Shown here: in pieces, positions 40,602 to 62,500 of the stretch
Layout of the letters: the number at the start of each line of letters is the position of its first letter
How positions within the stretch are numbered: position 1 is the first letter of the stretch
Made by a program: the position numbers and the translations under genes
The notes under the pieces: model-generated
Databases searched by the model: none
The model's input: only the letters and a program-made list of their open reading frames with translations
What the model was told of the DNA's origin: nothing
NCBI GenBank assembly: GCA_964035545.1
Contig: OZ037772.1
Location: forward strand, 10,741,318 to 10,805,317
DNA from: Bugula neritina
Lineage: Eukaryota > Bryozoa > Gymnolaemata > Cheilostomatida > Bugulidae
Length of the DNA: 64,000 nucleotides
Direction: 5' to 3'

Positions 40602-41524
40602 CTAGAGCTTAAAAGCAAGCAGAGATGTGAAGTCAATCCCTCATTACCTCTTTATAGTTTTTTTCTCAAAGAACATTCTGATAGCTATAACTCCATCGCG
40701 CAGCGTTTTTTTATACGAGGTATCACACAGATGGAGAGACACTATCTTTAAGCATTTAGGCTGCAGAGGCTTATTAACTCAAAATAGTAACCACGCATGA
40801 GAAAACACTGTGTGATAGAGGGCTGTGGTGTAAAATAACTTTTATTGTAATTCCTATAAGTTGTGCGTATTAACAAAACCACATTTCTGCACAGTAGATA
40901 CGTACAACTGGCACTAGGGAGAAATTTTCGGTTTAATTGCCATATAAGTGGATGCTTCGTGGGTTTGGTCTTCGTCTAAAACTGCTTCCTATTAATAAAA
41001 TGAACAAATTTGGTGTTTTACTTATATATGTGGTTGCCATGTTATATTTTACTGATACATTGATTTGTATAATTAATAAAATGAATCTACAAAATGCAAA
41101 TATGCTTTACCTCCAATTTATTTTCCAGTTTTCAGTTTTTAATTTGGATTTTTCGATTTTAAAAATAAATTTCAATGGTATATAGAGATACAATATAAAA
41201 CTTATGTACTTAAAATTCAATCACTATAATATTTGGCATTTAAACTTGCCACATGCTTTAAAAGTTAGCGAGATGTTAGCATGCTCCTGATTGGCTGAGT
41301 TTACACCACCTATTCAAAGAATCATAATAATTATTCCTATTGGAGCATGCAAGTAATGCTTGTGTAGGTTTATATAGGAAATGCATTGTTAAAGTCCCAT
41401 CTCTTTGCATATTGTATTTGCAAGGTTTTGCAGCTACAACAAGTTTTTTGAAAACCAGCATTGTGCTTACAAATAGGCATTGAAGTAATATAGTATTTTT
41501 AGTTTGCCTTTTGGTGCAGTAATA
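40602..41524. other. Spacer between the zinc-finger array and the transposase
   Basis: No gene seen. AT-rich unique sequence. I looked for a terminal inverted repeat matching the 3' side of the transposase ORF and did not find a clear one. Confidence 0.4.
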
Positions 41525-43360
41525 ATGCCTAAATTAAAGAAACGAAGTTTTCGTGGAAACCAGTATTCTTGTGATACTAAAGCTCTAACTATAACTGAGA
41601 CAGCTGACACTACTACTGCTATTGAAACTTCTACGGCTACAAGTATTGACGCTTCTAAACCTACAGTCTTGGAAAATTTTACACCTACAGGTACAACTAT
41701 TGAAACTTCTACAGGTACAACTATTGAAACTTCTACAGATGTTGACCCTGTTTCAGCTACAACTATGAACGCAAATACATCAGCAAGTTTGGCCAAGCTA
41801 GGTACTAGTCTACATAAATCTGCACAAAGTTTTACATCCAAGACTCTGATAAGACCCGATAGCGTGATAGTTCAGACTAAATTGATTCTAAGGCTGATGA
41901 AACGGTTGGCATCTGGTAAAATAGCCTGCCCGGATCATCTGACAGCGCCCCTTACCATAACTGTGGAGCCCTCTAGTGGAATAGTCTGCGAGTTCAAGTT
42001 TACTTGTTCCTATTGTGACGTCTTAGTTGAGAGTAATAAAATGAGTGAGAGAGATGCAAATAATCGATTCACCTTGAATACACAACTAGCTTTTGGCACC
42101 ATTCTAGCAGGCGGCCATAGAAGTACAGCTGAAACAATCGCGGTTCATTTAGGTTTACCCCCACCTGTCGCACATAGTGAATGGGCAAAAGATATGGAGT
42201 ATCTCAGAGAAGTGACCTCAAAGGTCGCTGACAGATCCATGTATCAAGCTGCCGAGGAAGCCGTTGAAGCAGTCAACGATACGGACATCACTGTGTCTTG
42301 TGATGGTACGTGGCAGCGCCGCGGGTTCAGCAGTAAAAATGGAGTAGCCACAGTTATTACGCACTCTAAAGACAAACCAGGAAAAGTTATTGACGTAGAG
42401 GTAATGTCTAGTTACTGCTTCACTTGCTCTCGCTATGGCGATGATGCTCCGGAACATAACTGTACAAAGAATCATCAGGGAACAGCTGGTAGCATGGAGA
42501 CTACTGGAATGGTTCGGATCTTTTGTCGCTCTCTTGAAAAAAGAGGAACCAGGTACTTAAACTATTTAGGTGACGGAGACTCCAAAGCTTTTAGTGCTGT
42601 GAAAGATGCTATGCCTTATGGACCTGACACCACCATTGAGAAGCTGGAGTGTGTCGGCCATGTTCAAAAGCGGATGGGTACGATGCTGCTCAACAAAGTT
42701 GAGCAATGCAAAGGTAAAGAGTTCTCCTGGGGAGGGCGCAAACACAGAGGTATAGGAGGCTTGGGGAAACTAAACAAATCAACTATTATGGCGATTCAGA
42801 TTCAATATGGAATAGCAATAAGGAATAACATTGGAGATTTGAAGGGAATGAAACGTTGTATTTGGGCAATTTGGCATCACAAAAACAAAAACCATAGTAA
42901 TTGTGGAACCTCTTGTCCAGCAGTGAATGGTACAGGTGATGGAAACGCTAACAGCTTACCAATGTTTGTTTTGAATGAAATTAAACCTGTATTTGAAACT
43001 CTTTCTGAAGAGTCGTTGTTAAAAAAATGCTTGCATGGTGGTACGCAAAACAACAATGAGTCCTTCCACAAGATCATTTGGTCCTATTGCTCAAAGAACC
43101 AGTTTGTGCAAAGATGTAGACTAGAGCTGGCTGTTAACTGTGCAGTGGTGCACTTCAACGATGGGGTTACGAATCTCACTTCTGTCTATAATTATTTGAA
43201 TATATCTGTTGGACAACAGCTAGCTAAGCATCTCTATGGGAAAGATCTTCTCAGAGTAGGCTCTGCGCAAAAAATTCTTGAGAAAGAAGGAAAAGGCAGA
43301 CGGAAAAGGAAAATATCATCCAAACCCAACAACCAGGATTACCAAGCTGGGGCCTTTTAG
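41525..43360 (+). CDS. Mutator-like transposase, intact intronless ORF
   Basis: 611 aa without introns. Residues 1-100 are Thr/Ser-rich, with a tandem repeat of ETSTGTTI. The core matches the Mutator-like transposase family found in many invertebrate genomes, whose members cut and paste DNA with a DDE catalytic domain. Candidate catalytic residues are D260 (SCDGTWQRRG), D350 (YLGDGDSKAF) and E512 (GGTQNNNESFH). A Cys/His cluster lies between the first two (CFTCSRYGDDAPEHNC), and another near residue 460 (HSNCGTSC). The tail is basic (KGRRKRKISSK), perhaps a nuclear signal. GC content is visibly higher than around it. AATAAA at 43614..43619. The start is the first ATG in the open frame. It could be an active element or a captured host gene; no TIR or target duplication was found. 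Confidence 0.8.
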   Translation: MPKLKKRSFRGNQYSCDTKALTITETADTTTAIETSTATSIDASKPTVLENFTPTGTTIETSTGTTIETSTDVDPVSATTMNANTSASLAKLGTSLHKSAQSFTSKTLIRPDSVIVQTKLILRLMKRLASGKIACPDHLTAPLTITVEPSSGIVCEFKFTCSYCDVLVESNKMSERDANNRFTLNTQLAFGTILAGGHRSTAETIAVHLGLPPPVAHSEWAKDMEYLREVTSKVADRSMYQAAEEAVEAVNDTDITVSCDGTWQRRGFSSKNGVATVITHSKDKPGKVIDVEVMSSYCFTCSRYGDDAPEHNCTKNHQGTAGSMETTGMVRIFCRSLEKRGTRYLNYLGDGDSKAFSAVKDAMPYGPDTTIEKLECVGHVQKRMGTMLLNKVEQCKGKEFSWGGRKHRGIGGLGKLNKSTIMAIQIQYGIAIRNNIGDLKGMKRCIWAIWHHKNKNHSNCGTSCPAVNGTGDGNANSLPMFVLNEIKPVFETLSEESLLKKCLHGGTQNNNESFHKIIWSYCSKNQFVQRCRLELAVNCAVVHFNDGVTNLTSVYNYLNISVGQQLAKHLYGKDLLRVGSAQKILEKEGKGRRKRKISSKPNNQDYQAGAF

Positions 43361-45976: not shown

Positions 45977-48900
45977 AACATATATATATAAACATATATA
46001 TAAACATATATATAAACACACACACACACACATATAAAAACATATATAAACACATATAAACACACATAACCACGTATACACACGTATACACACGTATACA
46101 CACATATACACACATATACACACATATACACACATATACACACATATATATACACACATATATATACACACATATATATACACACATATATATACACACA
46201 TATGAGTCAGTTTACTTCATTTAGTACACACCAGCAACTTAAGACCTAACATTAAAGTTTGCTCAAAATCAATTGAAATTTATTTTACATGATATTTTTA
46301 TGTGCTGGTTTTAACTACGCATAACAGAAAAGGCTGGGAGGGGATTCCCCAACATTAAAGCACAGGTCATTGTCATATGCACTTAACATTCTATATGTGC
46401 GGACCGTTACGAAAAAACCGTAACGGCCCGTAACCAAAACGAGCTGAATAATTAGGGAAAACATTGGAAATGAAGCAAAATTAAAAAGAACGTTGATTGT
46501 TTAGGTGTATTTATTGGTGTTTTACTAGTTTTGGCCAAAAAACCATGTTCATTACCAGCTAAATTGTGAAAAATAGCCAAAAACTGAAGATATCCAGTGT
46601 GTACTAAATTAAGTAAAATGAGACATATATAATATATTATTTTTTTATTTATTTATTCATTTATTTTATATAGCTAATTTACCCAGAGACCAACTTATAG
46701 GACAAGGGGGCTTTGCAAAAGTCTACTGGATGAGGAATAGCGAAGGAGAAAAAATAGCAGTGAAAAAGATTGATATTGAAACTGTTAAAGATCCCAGTGA
46801 TTCTCAAGAACTGGATATGGTAAAATTTTCAATTTGAAATACTTACATTTTTTACGATATAATAAAATGTAATAGATATATAACAAAATATATACCATAT
46901 TATATAATATATGCTGTATATTATATAGATTATAGTACATAGATTATATTAAAATTAATATAATCTATGTATTGAAATGAACTTTTTTAGATATGTTTTA
47001 AAAAATACTCAGAAGGAGTACCAAACTGTATTGTTTCTATTTATATATGAGCATTTGAGCAATTTGTGAAAATCAATTTATTAGCTTCAACAATTATTTA
47101 AAATTTAAAGTTATAAATGCATTTCGCTAACAGGAAATGAAAAACATTCACAGAGAAGTGCAAGTGATGAGTCAGTTGAATCACAAGAGGATAGTAAAGT
47201 ACTTTGGGTCAGAGGTCATTGACTGTGAACTTTTCATCTACATGGAATATCTCCCTAGAGGTTCCATTAAGGATGAGCTTCGGAGGAGACAAGCCCAGTT
47301 TTGTGAGTTGGAGGCAAAGAACTACATGCGGCATCTTCTAGAAGGTTTGACCTACCTTCATGAGAAGAAGATTATACATCGAGATATCAAAGGTACGGCT
47401 TCGTTAATGAGTCACTTCTCATTAATTCAAGCTATGATCAACTTACTCATATTGAGTGTTTATGAATAAATTGTGCCTTTAATATGTCATAAAAGTTGTT
47501 GGCTTACAAATACAACTTCAATCATATTTTGTGTTACTTTGATTTGCAACTTTAGGCTGCAACTATTTCAGCGAGAATTATAGTCCAAGAATTGTTGGAA
47601 AGATTTAGTGGTTAGAGCACTGACCTTGTAATTAAATACAAGGTCGGTGGTTTGATCCTCAGTCAAACTTATTGGTGATATTAAGAAGAGCATTCAGTCA
47701 TAATCTATATTAAATTTAAAAAACCTATTGCTATCAGGGATTCTCACAAGGGTGGTGACTAAATAAACTCATGCGTGTTTTTTTTTTATTGAAAAGTTTA
47801 TTCACTCGTCTAAATATTATTTAGGTATAATCTCTTTCAAAATGCAGGTTCCAACATTTTACTTGATGAGGACGGAAATGCAAAGTTGGCAGATTTTGGC
47901 CTTTCAAAGCGAATACAAACTGTGAAAACTAAAAGCACGGGAAACACAACTTTTACTGGAACAGCTCATTGGATGGCTCCGGAGGTCATTGTGGGGAATA
48001 CCTACAGTTTCAGAGCTGACATCTGGTGAGCTTTTGTCTAGAAACAAATTATTAAATTCAAAATATAATATTGCTTTGAAAAATTGTAGAAGTTGTAAAA
48101 ACAATATAAAAAATAATTTACAACTAATTTATTTTATCTAAAAAGTACGTTCTACATTTAAAAAATGACTCAAAGGGAAAATGAGTGAAAATAAAGCGTT
48201 TTAAGTAAAATGTGTCACACGATGTGATTCAGAAAAAAGGTTATTGCAAATAAGCTTTTGTCATCAGTTGACAGTTATTAAATAAGAAAGAAATGGCACT
48301 CAGATTGGGTTGTAGATAAGCAAATTATTAAATTGAACTTTTGTTAAATTTTCTTAAAATTTATAGTTTTCTTTACAGTTGGTTTATTAAAATGAATTGT
48401 AAAAATTAGAAATAAGAATAATTATTCTTATTATTTTTGAAATAAAATATATTTGTGAACTGTGGTACAGTTCTCATGTAATTATTTACAGCATATATAT
48501 TAGTATATTATAGTGTAAAAAGTTCAAAATGTGTGATTTATAGACCCTTGTGAGAAATTCTTTTGCTGGAATTGAGTTCATTTCATTGCATGGCCAACTA
48601 AAAACTACTTAATTCTAGTTTTAGCTTTATTGAAGATTAACTAGCTCTATACAAATCAATTGCAGCACATAGAAAAGGAATTTATTGCAATATTTACAAT
48701 ATTTCGCTATAATACTAAACAAATAAATCTTTAATGTGACATGTATAAGTTCCGTAATAATCAAAGAAAAAGTGATGTGTTGTTTTAGGAGTGCTGGTGC
48801 GACAGCAGTAGAAATGCTGACCGGAAACCCACCATATGGCATGAGCTGGAGGTCTACCAAGCAATATTTAAAATAGGAACCACCAGGACTGCTAAATACC

Positions 48901-49019: not shown

Positions 49020-49897
49020 CATTTTAGACTTGTACTATGTATTTTATTATTTATTACTTTCATATGGTATAGATATCTATTCATTTAAAGTAAAATGTTG
49101 TTGAGGTTGCATATATTTTATGATTACAATGTCTTACCGTGAAGTAATTTTAGTTTATATCTAATATATGTAGGCTATTTTATTTTTCAACGTGTTTTTA
49201 TATGTTTCCTCATTTCTGTAAGCAAAATTTTATGATTGTTTATTTTACTAAAATATATGATTACCTTTACTTCAAACTTTTTACTTCCTTTATCAAATTT
49301 AACAAAATTTTTATGCTAATAAAAAGAAACAAATTGATTTTTGAACATTGTTATTTATTGGCATTCTCACATATATTATATAACACAATATAAAGAATAT
49401 ATAATATATATAGCTGAAACACACATATAATATAGATCATAATATGTATTTAACACAGATTTTCTATTACATCATTTACGTACAGAAACCAAACTGTTCA
49501 TTTTACTTTTAATTCAACTAACAGATAACAAACAAACTGGTAAATTAAGGATGAACAAATATCTAGCAACAAACAAAAATGCCATATTGTATTTTCAATG
49601 TAGAAGAGCAGAGTTGTCTGCACTACAATCACTGTACTAGGGTCATGTTTCAACAGTTCTTCAACTCAATAACTTTAGTCTACAAGAAAACAATATTCAA
49701 TGTTATTCAATACAAAATATAATACTTTGTATCTGCATATAAATTATTAATACATGGCAGCTGGTATTCGAAAACAGCAAATGCTGATTCTATATTTTAA
49801 AACACCTGAACTATGCAATACCTGTCGAAATAAACAGCTTAAAGAATACAGTTTAAAATCATAATACTACTCCATGTTTAAGGCATCTGCAACTTCA

Positions 49898-50045
49898 GTT
49901 TTTTTTAAGTGGGCTAAAGACTTGTGTCTAAATGGCACAGACCCTATTATGACTGAATTCCCTTCCTCAAATCACATAAGTCTGGCCGAGATTTGAACCC
50001 ATGACCTCGTACGCACACTAGGTGGCGCTGTATCCACTAATACTT
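49898..50045 (-). mobile_element. tRNA-derived SINE, reverse orientation
   Basis: Read on the - strand: head with TTAGTGGATACAGCGCC, B box GGGTTCAAATCTC, body TTCAGTCATAATAGGG, CTGTGCCATTTAGACAC and TTTAGCCCACTT, poly-A-like end. Lies just downstream of the Bcl-2-like gene. Confidence 0.7.
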
Positions 50046-50063
50046 TTAGATGGTAACTATACG

Positions 50064-50215
50064 TGCAGGAAACAGAGTGTTGGCCCAATACAAGCAAGGT
50101 CATGTAGGGTTTGAACTTTGACAAAGCCATTGGTGATATGAGGAAAGGCATTTAATTACTTCTGTGCCTTAAGACTATGTCACCATCGTTATGACTAGCA
50201 AAGTCTTTAGCCTAA
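50064..50215 (+). mobile_element. Diverged SINE copy
   Basis: Head GGTCATGTAGGGTTTGAACT-TTGACAAAG, body CCATTGGTGATATGAGGAAA, CTTCTGTGCCTTAAG and TCTTTAGCC. It lies next to the reverse copy at 49898 and ends at the stop codon of the Bcl-2-like gene. Confidence 0.6.
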
Positions 50216-53200
50216 TTAAATTAAACTTTTAAAATGTGAATTCGTTAGTGGTACAGTTACCAAACCCACCCATCCTCCACTTGACTGAATCCAGGCATGG
50301 AAATGCTGATTCACAAACTCGGTTGCTATCTGGACAATGTCATAGAGTCTGCGGAGCTGGCAGTCTACTATTGGTTCTTTCAACTTACTCACTGCATGCG
50401 CAATGTCTGCAGTGAACACCAGTAGCTACAAGTACATCAACAGCTACAGGTACATAAACAACTACAAGTACAACAGCATTTACAGACACAACAGTATCTA
50501 CAGGTACACAAACAACTACGCGTATAGAAACAATTAGAGGTATATAAACAACTACAGGTAATTTACAGTATCTACAGGTACATCAATAACTACAAGTAGA
50601 AGTGTATAGTTATTTATTATATAATTATTATTATTAGCAATTATTGCAACAATCATTATTATAGCTAATTGTCATGTTATATAATATTTATTTCATCTGT
50701 ATAAATATTATATAACTTACAGATTTATTTATAATTAGCTAAATATTATATTGCATAACAACAAACACGACTTTTTCTTATATCAGAATGATATAATTAT
50801 ATTGTAGAGTAATTATTTTTATATTATTTAATGTTAATTTGCTGTTGAAGGTATTATTTATAATTTTGCTAATAGATATATTAGCCTATATATGGTATTT
50901 ACTTTCGCTAACTGTTATATTATATAACACCAAACAAAGATTTTTATTACATCACATAATATTATTATTATAGCTAGTTATTATATTGTTATTATATATT
51001 TATTTTTATAGTATTTGTAATATTTCAAATTACATGATAATTATTATAGTTTATTTTTTATCAAATTATAATATAATGAATGTACTATAGTTTATTATTG
51101 TAATATCATATTATATTATAATGTATTATAGCTTAATATTGTAATAATTATTATGTTGTACTATATAATGTATTATAGTTTAATATTTTAATATATTATG
51201 TAATATATTATAGCTTAATATTGTAATATCATATTATATTATATATTATAGTTTAACATTGTAATATCATATTAAAGATCGTGATAATATAATATCATGT
51301 ATTATGTTTACCATGATGATACGCTGCCAGGAGATGCCCTGCTGACCCCCAATCAGCCAGGAGTACATTACTTTATTGAACTTCATGCCTACGTGCTCTT
51401 TCGACTCCTCCACGTTCTTCATGCTGCACAACTCCATGTGGAATCTATCACAGAGCATTTGGTATTGGTCCTTTAATAAGTTCTTCAGTTCTTTACCTGA
51501 CAGTAAATATTAATACAGTTATACAGGGGTTAAAAACAGTAATATCGTAATTATACAGTAATGTCGTAATTTACACTAATTATACAGTAATACAGTTATA
51601 CAGTGTTACAGCGTTACAGTAATACAGTGATAGAGTAATAAGTGATATAACAGTAATATATATGCCTACATGCAACACTACACAACAATATATTGTTATA
51701 TTGAAGATGTAAATATTACTATTACTGTAATGTTATATTATTATACCTGGTCATTAGTGACTTGATATGCAATTATGTACTATAGTCACAGTTAGCAGTT
51801 GTAGTAATTAATATAGTCACAGTTATAACTATAACAGTTAGAATAACTAGACTGCAAATATAGTTATTATGGGCTTTGTAATTTTATCATGATAGCGGTA
51901 CAGCTAGCGTGAATAAATTATATTTGAAGAAAAATAAAATGTTGCAATACATTAACAGAACTTGAATACTTGCCAAGTTCGAGCATCACTTTGACTAGTT
52001 CTGTTTGACTGTAGTCACTCTCTACACCTTTTAGCATCTGCATGATTTTAGGCAGAGTAAAGCTCAAGGAACCTTCAGTACACACTTTATCTTTCAGACT
52101 GAAAAAATATCATTATAGCTTCAATATTCGTAGGGAGTAGCCGTGGTCTAGGGGTTGAAGCGTTTGCTTTGTGAACATGAAGTCATGGGTTCGAACCCAA
52201 CAAAGGCCATTGGTGATGTTAGGAAGAGCATCCAGTCATAATTGCTCCTGTGCCTCATTTAAATAAGCTCTTAGCCCACTTTAACAAAAACCCTCACAAT
52301 TTCTCACAGGGATGGTGACTATAAACTTGCGTGAGCTTTTTAGCTTTAAAATTCATCAATTGATATTTTTGCGTATTGTTTTTTAAATAAAGGTGCTCAA
52401 AATGAAATATGAATAAATTTATTTTAGTTACTGACCTTTCTCTCACGTAGGCAGAAATTACATCAAAGTTGACATGATTGAAACATCCTGGTTTTTCTTT
52501 TTGTTCAGGACTTTTGGTTTTTTTCTCCGGGGATTTATAGTCTGGAAAACGAACCAGCTTTACAATTCGTCTTGCCGCATTCGGGATATCAAACTCACAT
52601 TGCTTTACCAAATTTTTGCAGTTTGGTTTTAGGCCATTCTAAAACAAGTTTGATAAAAAAATATTATGTTAATGTTATTATTAGTCAATTACAATAAAAA
52701 ATATGAATCTTTTCACGTAAATTCTTGCATAACCTATCGATCACTATTGATCATAAGCATGTTATACTGAAATATAATGTGCCAGATAAAGCAATTAAAT
52801 TTTGTTTTAAATTTATTATTTTGAAGTTGTAATAAAATAAAGTTTTATAATATATAGAGCTATTTGCATTTGTTAAAATTTAGGTTCCATAGCATATTAC
52901 AATAGAAACAGGTTCTTTTTAGTATATAAAGCTATTTACATATAACACATCATTAGGCTTGGTCAATCAAAGTTAATTGTACATTATATTAAGTGAAATA
53001 ATTAACACTATAAATACCAATTACTAGAAAATAAATTGCAGAATAAAAGGCGTCTAAAAATCAACGTCTTTTGCTCTTTATAATTAAACTGACTTAATTT
53101 CAATAAAATGCGGCAATTAAACTTAAGTTGATTTGTCAAAGCTTCACTATAGTGATTATTGACAGAACAAGGTAAAAGCGCAAGCACATAGTAGTTGTCT

Positions 53201-55387
53201 TCTCTCAACAGTTGTCTAATGACTTACCCAGCCTCCTTGCTGTAGTAGAAAGTCACTTGCGTATTTATCAATGAAGTTGACACCTAGACTGACTAACTGC
53301 TGAATCTTATTCCCCACGTCACAGGGATCTCTTCTAATACTCTGTGTGACCATGGACAGCGTAAACGCCCACACCTACAGCAAACAGTTCAGCATATTGC
53401 ATTATATTACAGGATATTGCAGTATTTTGCTGTATATTACAGTTGACTACAGTAGTATATTACAGTAGTATATTACAGTTATTGATAACTTAAACAGTTT
53501 ATAAGGCTGTTGATTGAAAATTTTACCAGTTGTGATTAAAAGATATTACATTAAAAATAAAATCACAATAGAAATTATCTTATTCTTTATTGTTTTAATT
53601 TCTCAAAACTTTATAATGCATAACTTGATTTTGAGCACAATTATCAAATATATTTAATTTATGCAGTAATATTATATTGTTTAATATAGTTGAAGAGCGT
53701 GGATAGTTATGCATTATACTATTATTTCAAAGTATTCTCCCATTTGAAACACTTAATAATATTCACATCACATATCTTCTTTTATGTCAACTTATGAACA
53801 TATAAAGTACAAAACATATTATACAAAGTAGTACATATAGAACATTCTATTTGTTGGCAGTTCCACATAAACAGGAAATGACATACCACCAGCAATCTCT
53901 CCCATGTCATTGGATGGTCATCATCAATAAGCCACGCCCTTAGTATCTCGTTGAATACACTCGACACTACTGGTGGGTTAGAGTACTTGTCCGTAATGTA
54001 CTTGATTTGCTCTTTTAGTTCTGTTGTCACCTTTTCAACTGTTTTGGAGCATTTCTGCACAACGAAATTTACTGAAATAAACAGAAAAGTATTGTTAGTG
54101 TGTCATAATGCTTTAACTTTGGCTTAAAAGGACAACTTTCAACACTTAATGTAGACTGTGTTATGCTATTTCCCAAATTTCTAAAACAAGTCTATATCAA
54201 TATAGATGACCTACCAGTTTAATCTAATTTAATAGAGATTAATTATATGATACAAATGATTAATTATATGCATGACAGAATAGATGCAGCTTACAAAAGA
54301 ATTGAAGTTATTTTCAATAATTAGCAATATGTTTGTATAAAATGACGTAGGTATCAAACCACAATGCAATAATCATGCATAACCAATATTTATGAACTTC
54401 CAATTATAAATATAATCAAATTAGCATAATATAAATTGTCACTGAATAGTGGAAACAGTTTGAAGTATTAAACTACGTATAACTGCCATTCTAAATTATA
54501 ATCGGTTGAACAATTTTAAGCTCTCACCCACTTGTCCAATAGCCATCTGACCCGCATCCTGCTCTAAATCCTCCTTGTGCACTGGTAGTAGCTGGTCTAC
54601 CACTTTATCAGCTAGGGACTGAGTGCACTTCAAACTGCAAGTTAAGTGAAACTGATACGTGAACCAATAAAGCATGTTAAATGTATTTGAATGAACTGTA
54701 TATATGTAAAGTTGAAATAGAAATAGCTATATATAGAATGCTGGCTTATAAGTTATAGACGCTAGCTCATAGTATAAGTATTATAATAAGCTAAACAGAT
54801 ATTAAACCTTGCATAATATCTTACATCATTATAATTATGTAGTTTGACAGATCGAATATGCAATTTAAAATTAGCTAGTATAAAATGCTCAACTCATTGC
54901 TTTCAAACTTTGTCCATATAAATTAAATATTTTACATAATGCATTAATTTAGATTAAGCTAAATTTCTCATCACTAAAATAAGTAATAATTTTAATATTG
55001 GTCATTACTATTATTTCAAAAACAAGAGTTTTTTTTTTTCAAATATAAGCTCAGTTTTAGAAGCTGCACAATATATTATGTTTATATAATATATTATATG
55101 AATATAATATGATATTACTATAATTGTTCAGATATTATATTATATAGGTGAGATTATATATGTTCTAATATATATTATAATATATTATATATAGTATAAT
55201 TGTTTATCATATATATTTATGCATTATGTATGGCAATCTTCAGCTGAACAGTTGAACCGCATGTCAAACAAACAGGATATTAAGTTATAAAAGAAAGAAA
55301 TAAAACCCACTGTGTTCTAACGTATGCAGAGATTAGGTCATATGTACTCGGCTCCGAGGAGCAAGTAGGACTTTCCCGTCTTGGCAT
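50216..55387 (-). CDS. Protein with two tandem Bcl-2-like domains (BH1/BH2 in each)
   Basis: Eight exons, reading from the right: 55387..55311, 54634..54528, 54071..53887, 53374..53228, 52638..52436, 52098..51974, 51496..51312, 50425..50216; all phases agree and the product is 412 aa. Domain 1 (about 16-180) has a BH4-like start YDLISAYVR, a BH1 motif MTWERLLVVWAF (W118, R120) and a BH2 motif LLQQGGWNGL (W172). A lysine-rich linker follows. Domain 2 (about 230-400) repeats this: FDVISAYVRE, BH1 ISWQRIIMLLVF (W338, R340), BH2 HAWIQSSGGWVGL (W395). A BH3-like helix may be LVKVMLELGKEL in domain 2, with Lys where BH3 usually has Asp. No C-terminal membrane anchor. Bcl-2 proteins control mitochondrial outer membrane permeability in apoptosis; whether this one promotes or blocks death cannot be told. 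Intron 5 carries a SINE and intron 6 has a GC donor (TTG-GCAAGT). Confidence 0.7.
50430..50600. repeat. Imperfect minisatellite in Bcl-2-like gene intron 7
   Basis: Irregular tandem copies of a unit like ACAACTACAGGTACATAAAC. It begins right at the acceptor of the last exon. Confidence 0.7.
50640..51290. repeat. TATA-rich low-complexity tract in Bcl-2-like gene intron 7
   Basis: Long run of TATTATAT, TTATAGTTTAATATTGTAAT and similar words, including several imperfect repeats of about 50 bp between 51060 and 51270. No coding signal. Confidence 0.6.
52132..52350 (+). mobile_element. tRNA-derived SINE, best preserved copy
   Basis: Head with A box TGGTCTAGGGG (52144-52154) and B box GGGTTCGAACCC (52188-52199), as in a tRNA gene promoter for RNA polymerase III. 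Body: CCATTGGTGATGTTAGGAAG, CATCCAGTCATAATTGCTCC, TTAGCCCACTTTAAC, CACAGGGATGGTGACTA. It lies in intron 5 of the Bcl-2-like gene in antisense orientation. Head alone recurs in decayed form at 799, 4833 and 23038. Confidence 0.85.
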
Positions 55388-56541
55388 TTTTATGTTTTAC
55401 CCGAAGTTATTTTTTATACATATTTTAGAAAAACCAAACTACATTACATTTACTACAGAAAAAGAATGTATGAAACCACTCTACTTAGTTGCTACCAAAA
55501 GTGATGATGTAATCTATAGCGTAGAACCATAACTTAATTTTAAATAAGAAAAGCAATTAATAAAATATAGTCAAATATAAAATAGTATGCAATAATCAAA
55601 AATAGTAATAAAATAACAGGGGTTTTCTCAGGGGATGGAGGCTTTAAAAACAAACAGGAGTTTTATTAAATCTTGCTTTGCTATTAGGCTTTAAATAATT
55701 CTGCTTCTATGTGACACATTTATTAGATTATCTCACACTTTCATATATTCCTGTGTTTGTATAGTATTCTACAATTAGAGAAAATAATTTTGTGCTTTTA
55801 CTTTGACAATTACCACATTATATTTTATAAAATTAGCTAAACAAATTTGCTTTCTATATATGTCTATGATAGAGAAAAAAGTTACTGATTTACATGATAC
55901 TGTGTAATCAAAATTCAGTTCATTATTTGCGCATGGCTTCGATCACTACATAAAGTACATACCACTGCAATGTTAATGTACATTTAATGTATGCATGTTA
56001 TATGTAGATTGAGGTGTATTCACTTTATAATATTATAGTAGTATATATTATAATCAACATTTTGTAATAGGCTTCATAATAAATTGGGAATTCAATTATG
56101 TACTACAATCAAGAAACTTGTTAATATTAATTATTTAGATTTTAGAATTCTTTGTAATACGCAGAAACTATGGACAAACATTATTTCATTTGGAATTGCT
56201 GTGAATTAATTTTCAAGAGTTGTCTTCACAATTTGAAATGTAGGCGGCTCTGGAAATTTTATCCAACCAATAAAACAGCCTAACGACGCAATTCATCCAA
56301 TCAGAGGTTTGGTAAATAATATCCAATGATCTCTCTAAATCATGTATGGGTTTGTTAATTAGAATATTGCTGCGTTTCGCGTGATAAATATAAGTATGGT
56401 ATCAATTTGAGAGAAAAAAATGATTAAAATTTAAATTATTTCATAAATTATTTCAATTTACACGTCACCAATTGTTTTACACGAGTGGCTGCAACTTCTT
56501 ATTTATCTTTGAAAAAAAGCCGACTAAAACTTACTCTCATC
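55388..56541. promoter_or_regulatory. Shared intergenic region between divergent Bcl-2-like and Pin1 genes
   Basis: The two start codons face away from each other across 1.15 kb, so promoters of both genes and their 5' UTRs should lie here. CCAAT-like words occur near 56265-56330 (ATCCAACCAATAAAAC, CATCCAATCAG, ATATCCAATG) shortly upstream of Pin1. No clear TATA element could be chosen in this AT-rich sequence. Confidence 0.45.
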
Positions 56542-59500
56542 ATGAGTGGGACAAACGTTGAGGCAGCAAAAAAGGAGAGTGCATCCTCACTCAAGAAGGC
56601 CAGTAACTCATCCGTCAATAAAAAAGAAAGCCAGGAGAAAGATCAAACTGATGCTGAAGCAAAGCCAGGATCTTCTAGTAATGTAGCACCTGGTACTCAA
56701 GGCGAAGCAGCAGCACCTGCAGCTGCTGAACCTGATACTAGTGGCCCACCGCCACTGCCAGAAGGATGGGAAGAAAAAACTAGTAGATCGACTGGTAAGT
56801 CTTAACTTTAATTGCTAGCAACAATGAAAAATAATTAGATACTAGATACAGTACTAGATATTCATAATCCTAAATCATAATGATAATAAATTTGAAGCGA
56901 TAATAAAAAAGTTTTTGTTTACTTATATTTTTGATTATGTTACGGTTATTATTGTTAAGTGGGTATTATTATTATATTTATAATTTAGTGTATTTTATTA
57001 CTGACTATATTGAGTGATTGTGTGTACATTAATGATAATTACAGTGGTCATCATATATTTGTAAATAATAACTGTAATTATAATCATAATGATGATCATA
57101 ATGATTATATTTATGGTGTTATACTTATAGTTATAATATAAAATAGCTGTTAAATTATAGAATCATTTATTGCTAAGGGGTTTCTGGTTAAATAGATGAG
57201 AATAAAATAAAATTTATATCTTGTAGTCATGTGATTGCATATAAGGGCTGACCAACCCTGGCAGTTTTAATAATTGAAGTCAAAGCAATCAAATACTTGA
57301 ATTGATTCAAGTGAATTTTACATGATTTGCAAATTTTTATTTGGCCAATATTTACAAATTTCCAGATAATTTTATATTTGTCTAAAATCTAAACCTATAA
57401 AATTTATTCAGTAGTTACATGCAAATCAAAGTTCAAATGAAACCAAAAAATTGCATGCATTTTGATTTATATTTATTTTTATATTTATATTAATCTAATG
57501 GACATTAATGAATAACAAAATTAATATCCATGACAAAAACAAAGCTTTCAAATAGCTAAATTACTATACAACCATTGAAATGAAAATTGATTTTTTTTCT
57601 AACAAAAAGTAAAGCTAACCTATAATGTCATTCATAATTAACTTGCTTTTGACTCAAAAATTAGTTGATATTTTAATCAAAAATGAAAATCATCAATTTT
57701 AATTTGTTGAAGTTTTAAAGAATTTTTAGCAAGCTAAATTTGGTCAATTAATTGAGCACATCACATCAATAATTACCAGTTATTCATGTCAATTTGACTG
57801 TAACTCAGGGAAGGCCTACTCAATGACATTCTAACTCTGTTATTTCCCGCCGATCGTTGATAGATTAAATTCACGTCTGCTACTGCTGCCACCAAATTGG
57901 CTCCTGTGATTTGCTCATACATATTTCATGCCTTGTGACTAAGCATCTCTGGCCCTCTATTATTACTTATTTATGCCCCTGGAGTATTCTAGAATGTTCT
58001 ATTTGGATACTGCACAAGTAAATTTAGGCAGCGAGTTTTCAACAAATTAATCAAATCTTTGAATGATGAAACTATGAAAGCGAAGTTAACCAACTTGATA
58101 GAAACTAACCCCTTCCCCCACCCAGTCACACAGTAATTTAACAATCCACCACTTGACTGCTGTAAGAAAAGTCTGACTATTGCTTGTATTGTGGTGCAAA
58201 TTCAACTCTTATTAAGATATTAGACAAAGCTTCTGTCATTGCAGAGTGCGTCACCAATTATTTTGGTCCATGCTGTAAAGTTAGTTTATTCTGGTTGTTA
58301 ACGATACACAGCCCCACAAGGAAGAACTCGCGTCTCGCGGCCTGCTAGGAGCTGCAGTTTTTTTAATATTAAAATCTTATCACCACATTTTGACATGACT
58401 GAAAATCCGCTATGCCGCTCTACTTGCTATTATTGCATTATTACCTCAGAAATTACCTGATTGTTACTATTTATCAATCAATACTCTACACCACACCATG
58501 TATTGTGTCGTAAATGGGAATTGTTTGCCCCAGTAACCATTATAATGGTCAATATTGATTGCAAACAAATCATCTATTCACTTGTAGTAACTGTAAATAC
58601 TAGCAGTATCTGTTGGGACTTCTTTCACATGAGCTAAGCTGATGTCTTTAACAACTGTATAAAATTGAGATATGGAGTTGTTCCCACGTTGAAATTCCGT
58701 AGGCTAGTATTTGCTGGTTTTTAGAAATCTTCCATGATGCTGTCATTACAGTAATAAGTGACCTTGACCTAGCTCAGTGTCTGTGAGTGATGATTCACTA
58801 GAGTCTGTCTGCACACACCTCAAATCTTCAATGTATTCATAGACTATTAGCATAAAGTAACTTTAATATTGTTTAAAATGAACCTCAAGTAATGCTGAAT
58901 AAAATGAATATCTAATTAAGAAATTAATATTTTTGTGACTGGCCACTGTATTTAATTATTCACAAAGCATAGGCTGTGGATTAAATGCTCTGATACAATT
59001 TACAGGGTGGTGTGTTGAGTACCCCCACCCTAAGCATTGTTTATAGTAGGTTCAGGCTGATACTGTCTCTCTTTCTGTTGTAGGTAAGCAGTACTATGTC
59101 AACACCTATACCAAGGAGAGCATGTGGGAGAGACCCACTGAGCCGGCTCAGCCGAGTTCTGAACAGGTACCCAGTTGTTGACCTATTTCTAGCTAGCATA
59201 CAAAGGGTGGAAGTTTGTTAGTTGATTTAACCTCACTGTAGCATCATTATGATATTTTCGGATCTTTCGAAGGAAAACATCATTTGCAACCTTCTATCGA
59301 GTCTAAATTTCTCTGTAGTCGTGCTTATTTCTAGTAAGAGTTGCATTCTCTTTGATTAGTTCCCATTTCACTAAGTAGGAGTGCATATAAAGACATTCAT
59401 ATAATAAGTATATGATTCAGTAGTTGAAGTTGTTTCCTCTTTTCTCCAGTTTTATCGTGTCTGATATTGGTAGGCATATTTTGATTACATGACACTATTT

Positions 59501-62500
59501 TCAGCTAAATCTACTATTAGTTCAATCTAAATGTGCAATCAGCCTTGTTAGTAGAATAACTAAGGTGTGAACAGTTTATGCTGAGCTGTTTAATCTCCCA
59601 GCATGCTTACCATGAGCTCAACTTGTCTGATTCTTGGTTGACATTGAGTTCTCGGGTAGCTGAATTTGATCTCATGTAACTTATGGATGTGTACTTCATG
59701 TTTTTCATTAAACTAAGCGCACATGCTTTAGATAGAATGGACCTCCCTAAGTTAATTTGTAGGCTTCTTGCTAAAAGTGTGACTTTTTTAAAAAAATAGT
59801 TGTGTTAAAATAGCGGCACTGCCCCAGGCGTTTTGTACATCAGTATGACAACTCTTGAAATATATAGGAAAACTAGTAAGGTCTTGATGGCAGCGCAACG
59901 TCAAATAATTACATCTTTCACCAGTAACAGGTAGGTAGGTTGCATTAGTTAGGGTTTCAGAAAGTTTGTGTTAGTTGAGGTTGGTCTGTTATTGCCACAA
60001 ACTAGAGTTTGTAAAAGAACTTAGAGCTTAAGCTTTATTCTCGTAAAGGTAAAGTCAATTGCATATCTGCTCCATTATTCACTGTTTAGCCTGTGGGGAG
60101 AATAAAAAAGGTAGACCCGCTGTATGGGCATGGCAATTTGTTGCGAGAGCCATCATAATGTTATAAGTTGGCTTTTGCTTAGCTGAGTGGTAGTTTTAGA
60201 TGGGTGGCTCGCTAGTTTGCTAGTAGTAAGTAGAACGGCACGTGAGTCTTTATGCGGTTTCGTTCAGCCAATGATATTAGAGCACTTGCACGTTTTGCGC
60301 TACATTTAATTGCTAACTATTATCATTCAATTTAGACAAAGCTAGTACAGTGACTGTGTCTAGTAATAGTAGTAGTAGTAAGCTTTGTTTAAACTGTAAG
60401 TTTAAAGACGATCTATTCAGTATGGCTCAGGTAAGTCTTATGGCTTAATGAAAATATAGGCTGCTTAAGATGTCTTGCTTTGAAATTGATAATTACTTGG
60501 TCTTGTGGTAGGTATAGCTTGTGCCACTGCTAGTCCTAGTGCTGCCTGCTAGTATCAAAATGAAAATTGATAATAAAATTATTTATTGTAAGTGTTACTG
60601 TTAGTGTAGGACTCGTACTCATAGTCATACTGATTTGACTGAATCAATCGAGCTCTGTCTTCAGTCATACTCATAGTATTTCATTATAACTATAAATATA
60701 AACTTGTATAACTACAAGTGATTGTTAGCATCGTTATCATTGTCATTGTGATTTTCAGCATCATTGATCATTGTGATTAATTACAATTAGTTATACTATT
60801 GGGTAGATTTGCAATTTTATCAGCAAGATGGATGTCAAACTGCACTAGTTTTAAGTTGACAATTATCTTCTCAGTACAAAGTGATCATAACAAGATATCT
60901 CTAAGTTTGAAATTGGTCTCCGCTAAATTAATTGCTCAACGTTCCTAGAGAACATTGCATCAGGAATCTACTTTTATTTAATCATAATTCGGATATAGTC
61001 TGTGTTAGCATTTATCTTGTACAAAGCTGTTCCCTTTGCGATTGCTTAGGTTTCTTAGATTAGCTCCAATCTTTTAGCTCTTCTACTACAATGTTTGTTA
61101 AAAATGGTTGGAACCAACCAAGTTTGGTTTGTTTCCTGTGTGATGGATTGTAAAAAGCCAATATTTAATTATAGGTGAACTTTTAAGCCTGTATGATAAC
61201 TCTATTACTATTAGTAGACATTTTCAGTCGTTATCCATTTCAATTTTGCTTCCTTAAATTATGAGAATTATGAATTTGATTAGACTCAATGCCCATAACT
61301 AAAGTCTAACTATTTCCTACTTGTACAGGTGCAATGTTCACATCTGCTAGTTAAGCATGCTGGTAGCAGAAGACCATCCAGTTGGAGGGAGGAGAAGATT
61401 ACTAGAACTAAGGAAGAGGCCATAGAACTGCTGCAATGTACGTCTGCTATACTTACATAACCTATTGTAGTATATGCTCACTTACTCTCTAGTTAAAATG
61501 TCTGTAGAACACAAAGCTATAGGATAAATTTAAAAAATTCTCACTTTGAAAACAGCAATTTAATAACGCCTTTACTTTCTTGAGAGTTTATTTCATGTCA
61601 AGACTGAAAAAATGAGTGTTTTTTTAACCTGGGGCTTTATTTCCATAAAACATGATGTATGCTTTTGTACTATGCTTATCATTTGAGTTTTGGCTATATT
61701 TATTATCTGGTTATGCTGGGTTTTCTCAACTCTAAAGATGGAAGAGGGAGGGTGGCCTGTTAGACACCCTTTAAGCTCTCTGTGGTGTTTCTGGTTTGTC
61801 AACCTCTAGCTGAGTACTATACTTGTATAACTTGTATACTCTGTACTTATATACTTATATACTCTGTGCTTGTATACTCTGTACTGTATACTCGATGCTT
61901 GTATACTTTATACTCTATACTTATAGCATATAGAAAACAAATACAAGAAGGAACCGAGACATTTGAAGCTCTGGCCTCCAAGTTCAGTGACTGCTCCTCA
62001 GCCAAGAGAGGTGGTGACCTTGGCCCATTTGGTAAAGGTCAAATGCAGCGCGCCTTTGAGACTGCTGCCTTTGCCCTGGAGGTTAGTTGAGCAGCTGCTA
62101 TTTTTAGTCAGTAGCAGTTCTCTTGTTTTTTGTAGGCACTTGACTTGAGTCAGAGTTTTGGTTCAGTGTCAAGGTGAAACTCTCGATAGCAATTTCAATT
62201 TGCCAATTTACTAGGATTTCATTGCCGAAAAAAACAAATTTTCAGTGCTTCATGCAAATTACTAAGAAATTTTGCTTTTGAGATTGTCAACTTGCCTGTA
62301 ACTCGCTATGGGGCTAGGTTTAAATATTTGTAATGTAGCATGTGTCCTATATTCTTTTTTATTATTTATATGCCCACAATTTTAGTAAAATAACATGTAA
62401 AAAAACTTTGGGTTTATGAAGGTTTTAAATTTCAGCTTTTGATGTAGTGTTTTCATAAATCAGTTCAATGCAATGGATATTTTTTGCCAATGCAGCAGTT

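What the first reader, a model, noticed from the sequence alone, without database searches (positions are those of the whole stretch)
50216..55387. One protein with two tandem Bcl-2-like domains
Two halves of a 412-aa protein each show a BH4-like start (YDLISAYVR / FDVISAYVRE), a BH1-like W-x-R motif (TWERLLV / SWQRIIM) and a BH2 GGW motif (LLQQGGWNGL / WIQSSGGWVGL). Known Bcl-2 family proteins normally carry one such domain. The BH1-W to BH2-W spacing is nearly equal (54 and 57 residues). A fused tandem could act as a built-in dimer or have one domain regulating the other.
Basis: partly seen in the sequence, partly recalled or inferred. Interest (0 to 1): 0.85.

Follow-up and report, generated by a model that had tools for sequence, protein, structure and literature searches.

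The report
Protein with two linked Bcl-2 domains
An invertebrate gene joins two Bcl-2 cell-death-control domains into one protein without a membrane anchor, and a diverged sister gene elsewhere in the same genome has the same build, so the pairing looks like an old, kept design rather than a misread of two genes.

Summary
The minus-strand gene has nine exons (55387-49650, 404 aa), not eight. Each half, searched alone, passes Pfam's Bcl-2 cut-off (40.8 and 50.2 bits; cut-off 31.4). Both halves share one exon plan (intron phases 2,1,0,0; 185-nt third exon), also found in a single-domain Bcl-2 gene of this genome, L018b, apart from that exon's length (155 nt). Domain 2 has no in-frame methionine before its BH4 helix, so it cannot be an intact separate gene. 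A second, diverged gene (L022, 558 aa) has the same nine-exon, two-domain layout; by pairwise scores first matches first and second matches second best, so the pairing most simply predates that duplication. Neither tandem protein has a membrane anchor, and all four domains lost the BH1 glycine while keeping W-x-R; some single-domain relatives share each of these losses. Best mechanism, inferred: a soluble covalent Bcl-2 pseudo-dimer that regulates rather than forms pores. My paper searches listed no tandem Bcl-2 protein. Transcripts, a fold model and other species were not examined.

The parts
55311..55387 (-). exon 1: start codon and BH4-like helix 1 of domain 1 (YDLISAYVR); donor GTGGGT, phase 2
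   Evidence: in-frame TAA 12 nt upstream of the ATG
54528..54634 (-). exon 2: domain 1, helix 1-2 region; phase 1 donor splits the codon at the inferred BH3 glycine position (Val here)
53887..54071 (-). exon 3 (185 nt): domain 1 core up to BH1 (MTWERLLV); phase 0 donor
   Evidence: Pfam Bcl-2 over residues 76-172 when domain 1 is searched alone, 40.8 bits
53228..53374 (-). exon 4: domain 1 helix 5 to BH2 (LLQQGGW); donor GTAAGT directly after GGW
   Evidence: exon end at GGW is a Bcl-2 gene hallmark (PMC8998228 section 6)
52436..52638 (-). exon 5: joins the domains: 57 residues from GGW to FDVIS, without Met, then BH4-like helix 1 of domain 2; phase 2 donor
   Evidence: no Met between residues 131 and 259
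51974..52098 (-). exon 6: domain 2, helix 1-2 region; GC donor (GCAAGT), phase 1, splits the Gly codon at the inferred BH3 position
51312..51496 (-). exon 7 (185 nt): domain 2 core up to BH1 (ISWQRIIM); phase 0 donor
50270..50425 (-). exon 8: domain 2 helix 5 to BH2 (WIQSSGGW); acceptor at the edge of an 18-bp repeat array, so its start is the least certain boundary; donor directly after GGW
   Evidence: FTAD register shared with the paralog; repeat array
49650..49679 (-). exon 9: short tail TKVIELKNC and stop; too short for a membrane anchor
49650..55387 (-). whole tandem Bcl-2 gene, 9 exons, 404 aa

Best explanation
Supported by sequence: a nine-exon invertebrate gene encodes one 404-aa protein with two Bcl-2 domains in tandem, each built on the four-exon Bcl-2 plan that single-domain gene L018b of the same genome has before its anchor exon; the pairing is most simply old, because a diverged paralog on another contig has it too. 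Inferred (about 35% for this mechanism): the protein is a soluble, covalent Bcl-2 pseudo-dimer that regulates cell death, or a pathway derived from it, by binding partners. It is probably not a membrane pore former, because it has no C-terminal anchor and its BH3-like helices lack the Gly-Asp signature. Domain 2 is the better preserved, probable partner-binding unit; domain 1 is the more diverged and most likely modulates it or adds a second binding surface.
For: Pfam Bcl-2 for each half alone, above the curated cut-off. A profile of the four tandem domains finds Bcl-2, A1 and Bax structures at about 1e-6. Intron phases 2,1,0,0 in both halves with a 185-nt third exon, repeated in the paralog: 16 of 16 introns of the two genes in matching phase, 4 of 4 third exons 185 nt. 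The single-domain gene L018b has phases 2,1,0,0 as well, with a separate tail exon after GGW. No start codon for domain 2 before its BH4 helix. Pairwise scores first-first 169 and second-second 217 against 93-129 for the four other pairs. Domain 1 against domain 2 profiles E 6.8e-14 over 161 columns. No hydrophobic tail in either tandem protein. BH1 W and R kept and glycine replaced in 4 of 4 tandem domains.
Against: No transcript data. Domain 1 of the paralog alone stays below Pfam's cut-off (25.5 against 31.4 bits). Trees are sensitive to row choice and none recovers A2 with B2 as a pair. Loss of the anchor and of the BH1 glycine is not special to the tandem proteins: L021a and L021b show both. 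Function is wholly inferred; loss of the BH1 glycine could mean that neither groove binds BH3 peptides.
Confidence: 0.6

Rival explanations
1. Two separate neighbouring Bcl-2 genes, wrongly joined by the reader. Adjacent head-to-tail Bcl-2 genes do exist in this genome (L018, L021).
For: L018 and L021 each hold two adjacent single-domain Bcl-2 genes on one strand. The AT-rich introns could hide a poly(A) site; a message ending in intron 4, or a domain 2 started at Met259 without its BH4 helix, is not excluded.
Against: Domain 2 has no in-frame Met before its BH4 helix; exon 5 opens right after an acceptor and joins exon 4 in phase 0; no anchor exon or stop lies between the domains in the model, unlike in L018, where an anchor exon and stop precede the next ATG (by eye); a second gene has the same joined layout, though its own exon 5 does hold two Met.
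Confidence: 0.05
2. A pro-survival Bcl-2 protein with two usable grooves, binding two BH3 ligands at once (avidity trap in the cytosol).
For: BH1 W-x-R and BH2 G-x-W kept in 4 of 4 tandem domains; domain 2 best matches Bcl-2 structures.
Against: The BH1 glycine is E, Q, D, D in the four domains; for Trichoplax Bcl-2L4, which lacks the same glycine, the authors thought a working BH3 groove unlikely (PMC8998228 section 6). Domain 1's best structure hit by profile is Bax, not a pro-survival protein.
Confidence: 0.2
3. A Bcl-2-fold protein moved to a job outside apoptosis (for example immune signalling or scaffolding).
For: Degenerate BH3 and BH1, no anchor, a 145-residue tail in the paralog, many Bcl-2 matches in this genome (28 at E<=10; lower ones may be chance).
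Against: No positive evidence for another pathway; Pfam names no other domain in either full-length protein.
Confidence: 0.3
4. Decaying pseudogene.
For: One GC donor; domain 1 diverged.
Against: Nine exons without internal stops and with AG acceptors and GT or GC donors in two diverged paralogs; in the window gene the coding frame is the only open one in exons 1-8; BH1 and BH2 tryptophans invariant in the four domains.
Confidence: 0.04

Closest known systems
Multi-motif Bcl-2 family proteins (Bcl-2, A1/BFL-1, Bax, Bok)
   Same: Each half: Pfam Bcl-2, BH4-BH1-BH2 order, exon end directly after the BH2 GGW codon; an intron inside the inferred BH3 region, as reported for mammalian Bok (PMC8998228 section 6).
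   Different: Two domains per protein, no membrane anchor, BH1 glycine lost in both, BH3 Gly-Asp absent.
Single-domain Bcl-2 genes of the same genome (L018a, L018b)
   Same: L018b has the same intron phases 2,1,0,0 and ends an exon at GGW.
   Different: One domain each, a C-terminal hydrophobic segment (2.36 and 1.48 on the Kyte-Doolittle scale), BH1 glycine present.
Single-domain relatives L021a and L021b
   Same: BH1 glycine lost and no hydrophobic tail.
   Different: One domain each, long tails, BH1 arginine lost too.
Trichoplax Bcl-2L4
   Same: BH1 W-x-R without the glycine (SWRR; PMC8998228 section 6).
   Different: Described there as one Bcl-2 protein, with BH3 present.
Coral Caspase-X (double caspase)
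   Same: A cell-death protein with two copies of its domain, one of them inactive and suggested to modulate the other (PMC4715348, abstract and passages).
   Different: Different domain family; there cell-killing activity was tested in HeLa cells.

Membership tests
Bcl-2 family (multi-motif) | Pfam Bcl-2 domain over curated cut-off | tested here: met
   Domain 1 40.8, domain 2 50.2 bits; cut-off 31.4
Bcl-2 family (multi-motif) | BH2 motif G-G-W | tested here: met
   Both halves; paralog domain 1 has G-D-W, its domain 2 G-G-W
Bcl-2 family (multi-motif) | BH1 motif N-W-G-R | tested here: inconclusive
   W and R kept, glycine replaced by E and Q
Bcl-2 family (multi-motif) | BH3 motif L-x-x-x-G-D (motif from recall) | tested here: not met
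   At the intron-split codon domain 1 has V-N and domain 2 G-K; the BH3 position is inferred, from the alignment of single-domain relatives with Bcl-xL
Bcl-2 family (multi-motif) | BH4-like helix 1 | tested here: met
   Domain 2 profile aligns from helix 1 with four single-domain relatives and domain 1 with domain 2 from helix 1; against it, domain 1 with those relatives aligned only from BH1 on
Bcl-2 family (multi-motif) | Exon end directly after the BH2 GGW codon | tested here: met
   Both halves, phase 0; hallmark from PMC8998228 section 6
Bcl-2 family (multi-motif) | C-terminal membrane anchor (common, not universal) | tested here: not met
   Tail is nine residues
Bcl-2 family (multi-motif) | Helical-bundle fold by structure | not tested
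   No fold job was sent; sequence-profile evidence only
Pore-forming Bax/Bak effectors | BH3 able to enter another groove, plus anchor | tested here: not met
   BH3 Gly-Asp absent by inference and no anchor; pore activity itself was not testable

The most novel reading that the evidence does not exclude
An ancient family of naturally tandem Bcl-2 proteins: a covalent Bcl-2 heterodimer in which a fast-evolving, groove-altered first domain holds or tunes the second, comparable in logic to Caspase-X or to c-FLIP with caspase-8, giving a soluble, anchor-free switch in an animal with an expanded Bcl-2 set.
Probability: 0.25. Interest if true: 0.75.

Novelty: new variant of a known kind. Interest (0 to 1): 0.55.

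Why it matters
Bcl-2 proteins are known to work by groove-to-helix contacts between separate molecules. A natural protein with two such domains in one chain, kept in two diverged genes, offers a direct test of how Bcl-2 domains contact each other and whether a linked pair can regulate without a membrane anchor. It also suggests how adjacent Bcl-2 gene copies can become a single gene.

Tried and rejected
Two-gene reading: rejected because domain 2 has no start codon before its first helix and because the paralog has the same layout. L018 and L021 as further tandem proteins: rejected; in L018 an anchor exon and stop precede the next ATG, and in L021 a stop and a new ATG lie between the two domains (read by eye; L018b and the L021 tails checked). 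An alternative exon 8 acceptor at 50406: rejected, it breaks the frame. Homologues in the protein collection: none at E<=1 (2777 candidates) or at E<=0.01 with both tandem proteins (7989 scored); no relative of any kind came back, so this says nothing about other animals.

Tree of exon 3+4 cores: with 12 rows the four tandem domains form one side of a branch at 95/97 and A1 groups with B1 at 83/85, with a long-branch warning. With A1 dropped the other three are unresolved; with B1 dropped the three group at 92/98, but with A1 beside B2 (89/88); with L021a and L021b dropped the four still stand apart from the six single-domain rows (92/87) and A1 groups with B1 (97/97), but B2 sides with them against A2 (96/94). 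No tree shows A2 paired with B2, so that pairing rests on the scores and on the shared layout.

Species: not named by any tool. The COX1 on contig C295 has nine in-frame TGA and reads through under table 5, which I chose; this fits an invertebrate animal.

Paper searches for a tandem Bcl-2 protein: (15 of 12,370 listed; 15 of 36; 11 of 11; 6 of 6; 1 of 1; 3 of 3; 10 of 18; 8 of 55) for bryozoans; none of the listed titles or abstract starts names one. The library lacks most subscription papers.
Full report
What is there. On the minus strand of the window lies a nine-exon gene model (55387-49650). Exon ends, phases and splice sites are: seven introns with GT donors and one with a GC donor, all with AG acceptors. 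The protein has 404 residues: domain 1 at about 15-176, a linker (57 residues from GGW to FDVIS), and domain 2 from about 229 to the end. An in-frame stop lies just upstream of the start codon. Exons are GC-richer than introns (0.435 against 0.261), and in exons 1-8 only the coding frame is free of stops.

Its last exon was extended past the second GGW into the intron. The likely junction follows the GGW codon, exactly as after the first GGW, and a 30-nt ninth exon ends the protein. An exon that ends at the GGW tryptophan is a reported hallmark of Bcl-2 genes (PMC8998228, section 6 read).

Both halves are Bcl-2 domains. Pfam Bcl-2: 84.2 bits for the whole with two stretches; 40.8 and 50.2 bits for the halves alone; cut-off 31.4. 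Against solved structures, domain 1 alone gives only weak hits (best A1/BFL-1, E 0.019) and domain 2 gives Bcl-2 (a Bcl-2/Bcl-xL chimera) at 1.4e-6. A profile of the four tandem domains reaches Bcl-2, A1 and Bax at 8e-7 to 1.7e-6. The domain 1 profile (two sequences) has Bax as best hit, 2.6e-4; the domain 2 profile has Bcl-2, 1.5e-7.

It is one gene. The four introns of each half sit at matching places with phases 2,1,0,0, and exons 3 and 7 are both 185 nt. Exon 5 carries the linker and the first helix of domain 2 without a methionine: none lies between residues 131 and 259, so domain 2 has no start of its own that would include its BH4 helix. A message ending in intron 4 cannot be excluded without transcripts.

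It is not alone. Searching the same genome with the protein gave nine matches: eight from the gene itself and one on contig C5 (39% identity). The region around it (L022) holds a second gene of nine exons with the same phases and again 185-nt exons 3 and 7: 558 aa, with a 145-residue tail. Pfam finds Bcl-2 in it in two stretches (57.2 bits); its domain 2 alone scores 37.9 bits, its domain 1 alone 25.5 bits, below the cut-off. Domain 1 of one gene matches domain 1 of the other best (score 169) and domain 2 matches domain 2 (217); the four other pairs score 93-129; in all six comparisons 0 of 1000 shuffles reach the observed value. The simplest reading is that the two-domain form existed before the two genes separated. 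Trees do not settle it: A1 groups with B1, but A2 with B2 is never recovered.

Origin. Each half has the plan of a Bcl-2 gene before its last exon: the single-domain gene L018b has phases 2,1,0,0 and then a tail exon with a hydrophobic segment. Domain 1 and domain 2 profiles match each other (E 6.8e-14) better than either matches four of the single-domain Bcl-2 proteins of this genome (1.4e-5 and 5.5e-9), so the halves most likely came from one duplicated unit. The genome has many Bcl-2 matches (28 at E<=10, several of them exons of one gene and the weakest possibly chance), including adjacent head-to-tail single-domain genes (L018, L021), the kind of arrangement from which such a fusion could arise. 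I did not model all of these loci.

What it may do. Neither tandem protein has a C-terminal hydrophobic anchor: the window tail is nine residues, and the L022 tail peaks at 0.26 on the Kyte-Doolittle scale, against 2.36, 1.48 and 2.25 for L018a, L018b and L020 (1.48 is hardly above the 1.44 of an internal helix of the window protein). This is not special to tandem proteins: the tails of L021a and L021b peak at 0.68 and 0.47. The BH1 glycine is E, Q, D and D in the four tandem domains, W and R being kept in all four. Among eight single-domain relatives that I read out, the glycine is kept in four (L001, L002, L018a, L018b) and lost in four (L021a, L021b, L028, L033); other loci, such as L024 and L034, which show W-G, were left out of that count. 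Authors thought a working BH3 groove unlikely in Trichoplax Bcl-2L4, which lacks the same glycine (PMC8998228, section 6). By the intron-split codon, the BH3 Gly-Asp pair is V-N, G-K, G-T and G-N in the four domains; the BH3 position is inferred. I infer a soluble regulator rather than a pore former. The pseudo-dimer idea has a parallel in coral Caspase-X, where an inactive caspase domain is suggested to modulate the active one in the same chain (PMC4715348, abstract and passages).

What is missing. No transcripts, no fold model, no other species, and no completed search for a third tandem gene with the L022 protein. Term searches inside PMC8998228, PMC2246300, PMC5550854, PMC7022251 and PMC4715348 returned no passage on a tandem Bcl-2 protein; of these I read only passages, plus section 6 of the first. 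PMC6540150 was looked at only for BH1 mutants and dimers (passages).

Noticed in passing
L022 (G000:C5:17542800-17552700), exons 6121-603 on the minus strand: Second tandem Bcl-2 gene, 558 aa, nine exons, with a 145-residue tail.
   Followed up: yes
L018 (G000:C3:19923000-19932900) and L021 (G000:C8:9877000-9886900): Adjacent head-to-tail single-domain Bcl-2 genes; the second L021 gene is followed by a 618-codon proline- and serine-rich open frame. The genome seems to have an expanded Bcl-2 set with several diverged copies on contig C8.
   Followed up: partly
window 1338-40598, plus strand: Array of C2H2 zinc-finger genes: ten open frames of 95 aa or more share an ADWETFYDSLDS-type exon, with finger-bearing frames between them by eye; one finger frame was checked with Pfam, and one ADWETFYDSLDS frame gave no Pfam hit.
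   Followed up: no
window 41489-43357, plus strand: 623-codon open frame with a Mutator-like transposase domain (PF20700, E 5.1e-58), next to the zinc-finger array.
   Followed up: no
window 47131-47466, plus strand: Exon of a protein kinase (PF00069, E 6.6e-21).
   Followed up: no
window 56428-62087, plus strand: Probable Pin1-like gene: a start exon with a WW-like motif (recalled; no Pfam hit for that frame) and a rotamase exon (PF00639, E 1.8e-13), head to head with the tandem Bcl-2 gene.
   Followed up: no
G000:C6:11174072-11175412 and G000:C17:12213-13505: Besides the COX1 on contig C295, a near-equal match lies on large contig C6 (nuclear copy or assembly join), and contig C17 holds a COX1 without any TGA, perhaps from a bacterial associate.
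   Followed up: no
window 50416-50560: 18-bp repeat array directly beside the exon 8 acceptor; the acceptor TTGTAG itself resembles the repeat unit.
   Followed up: partly
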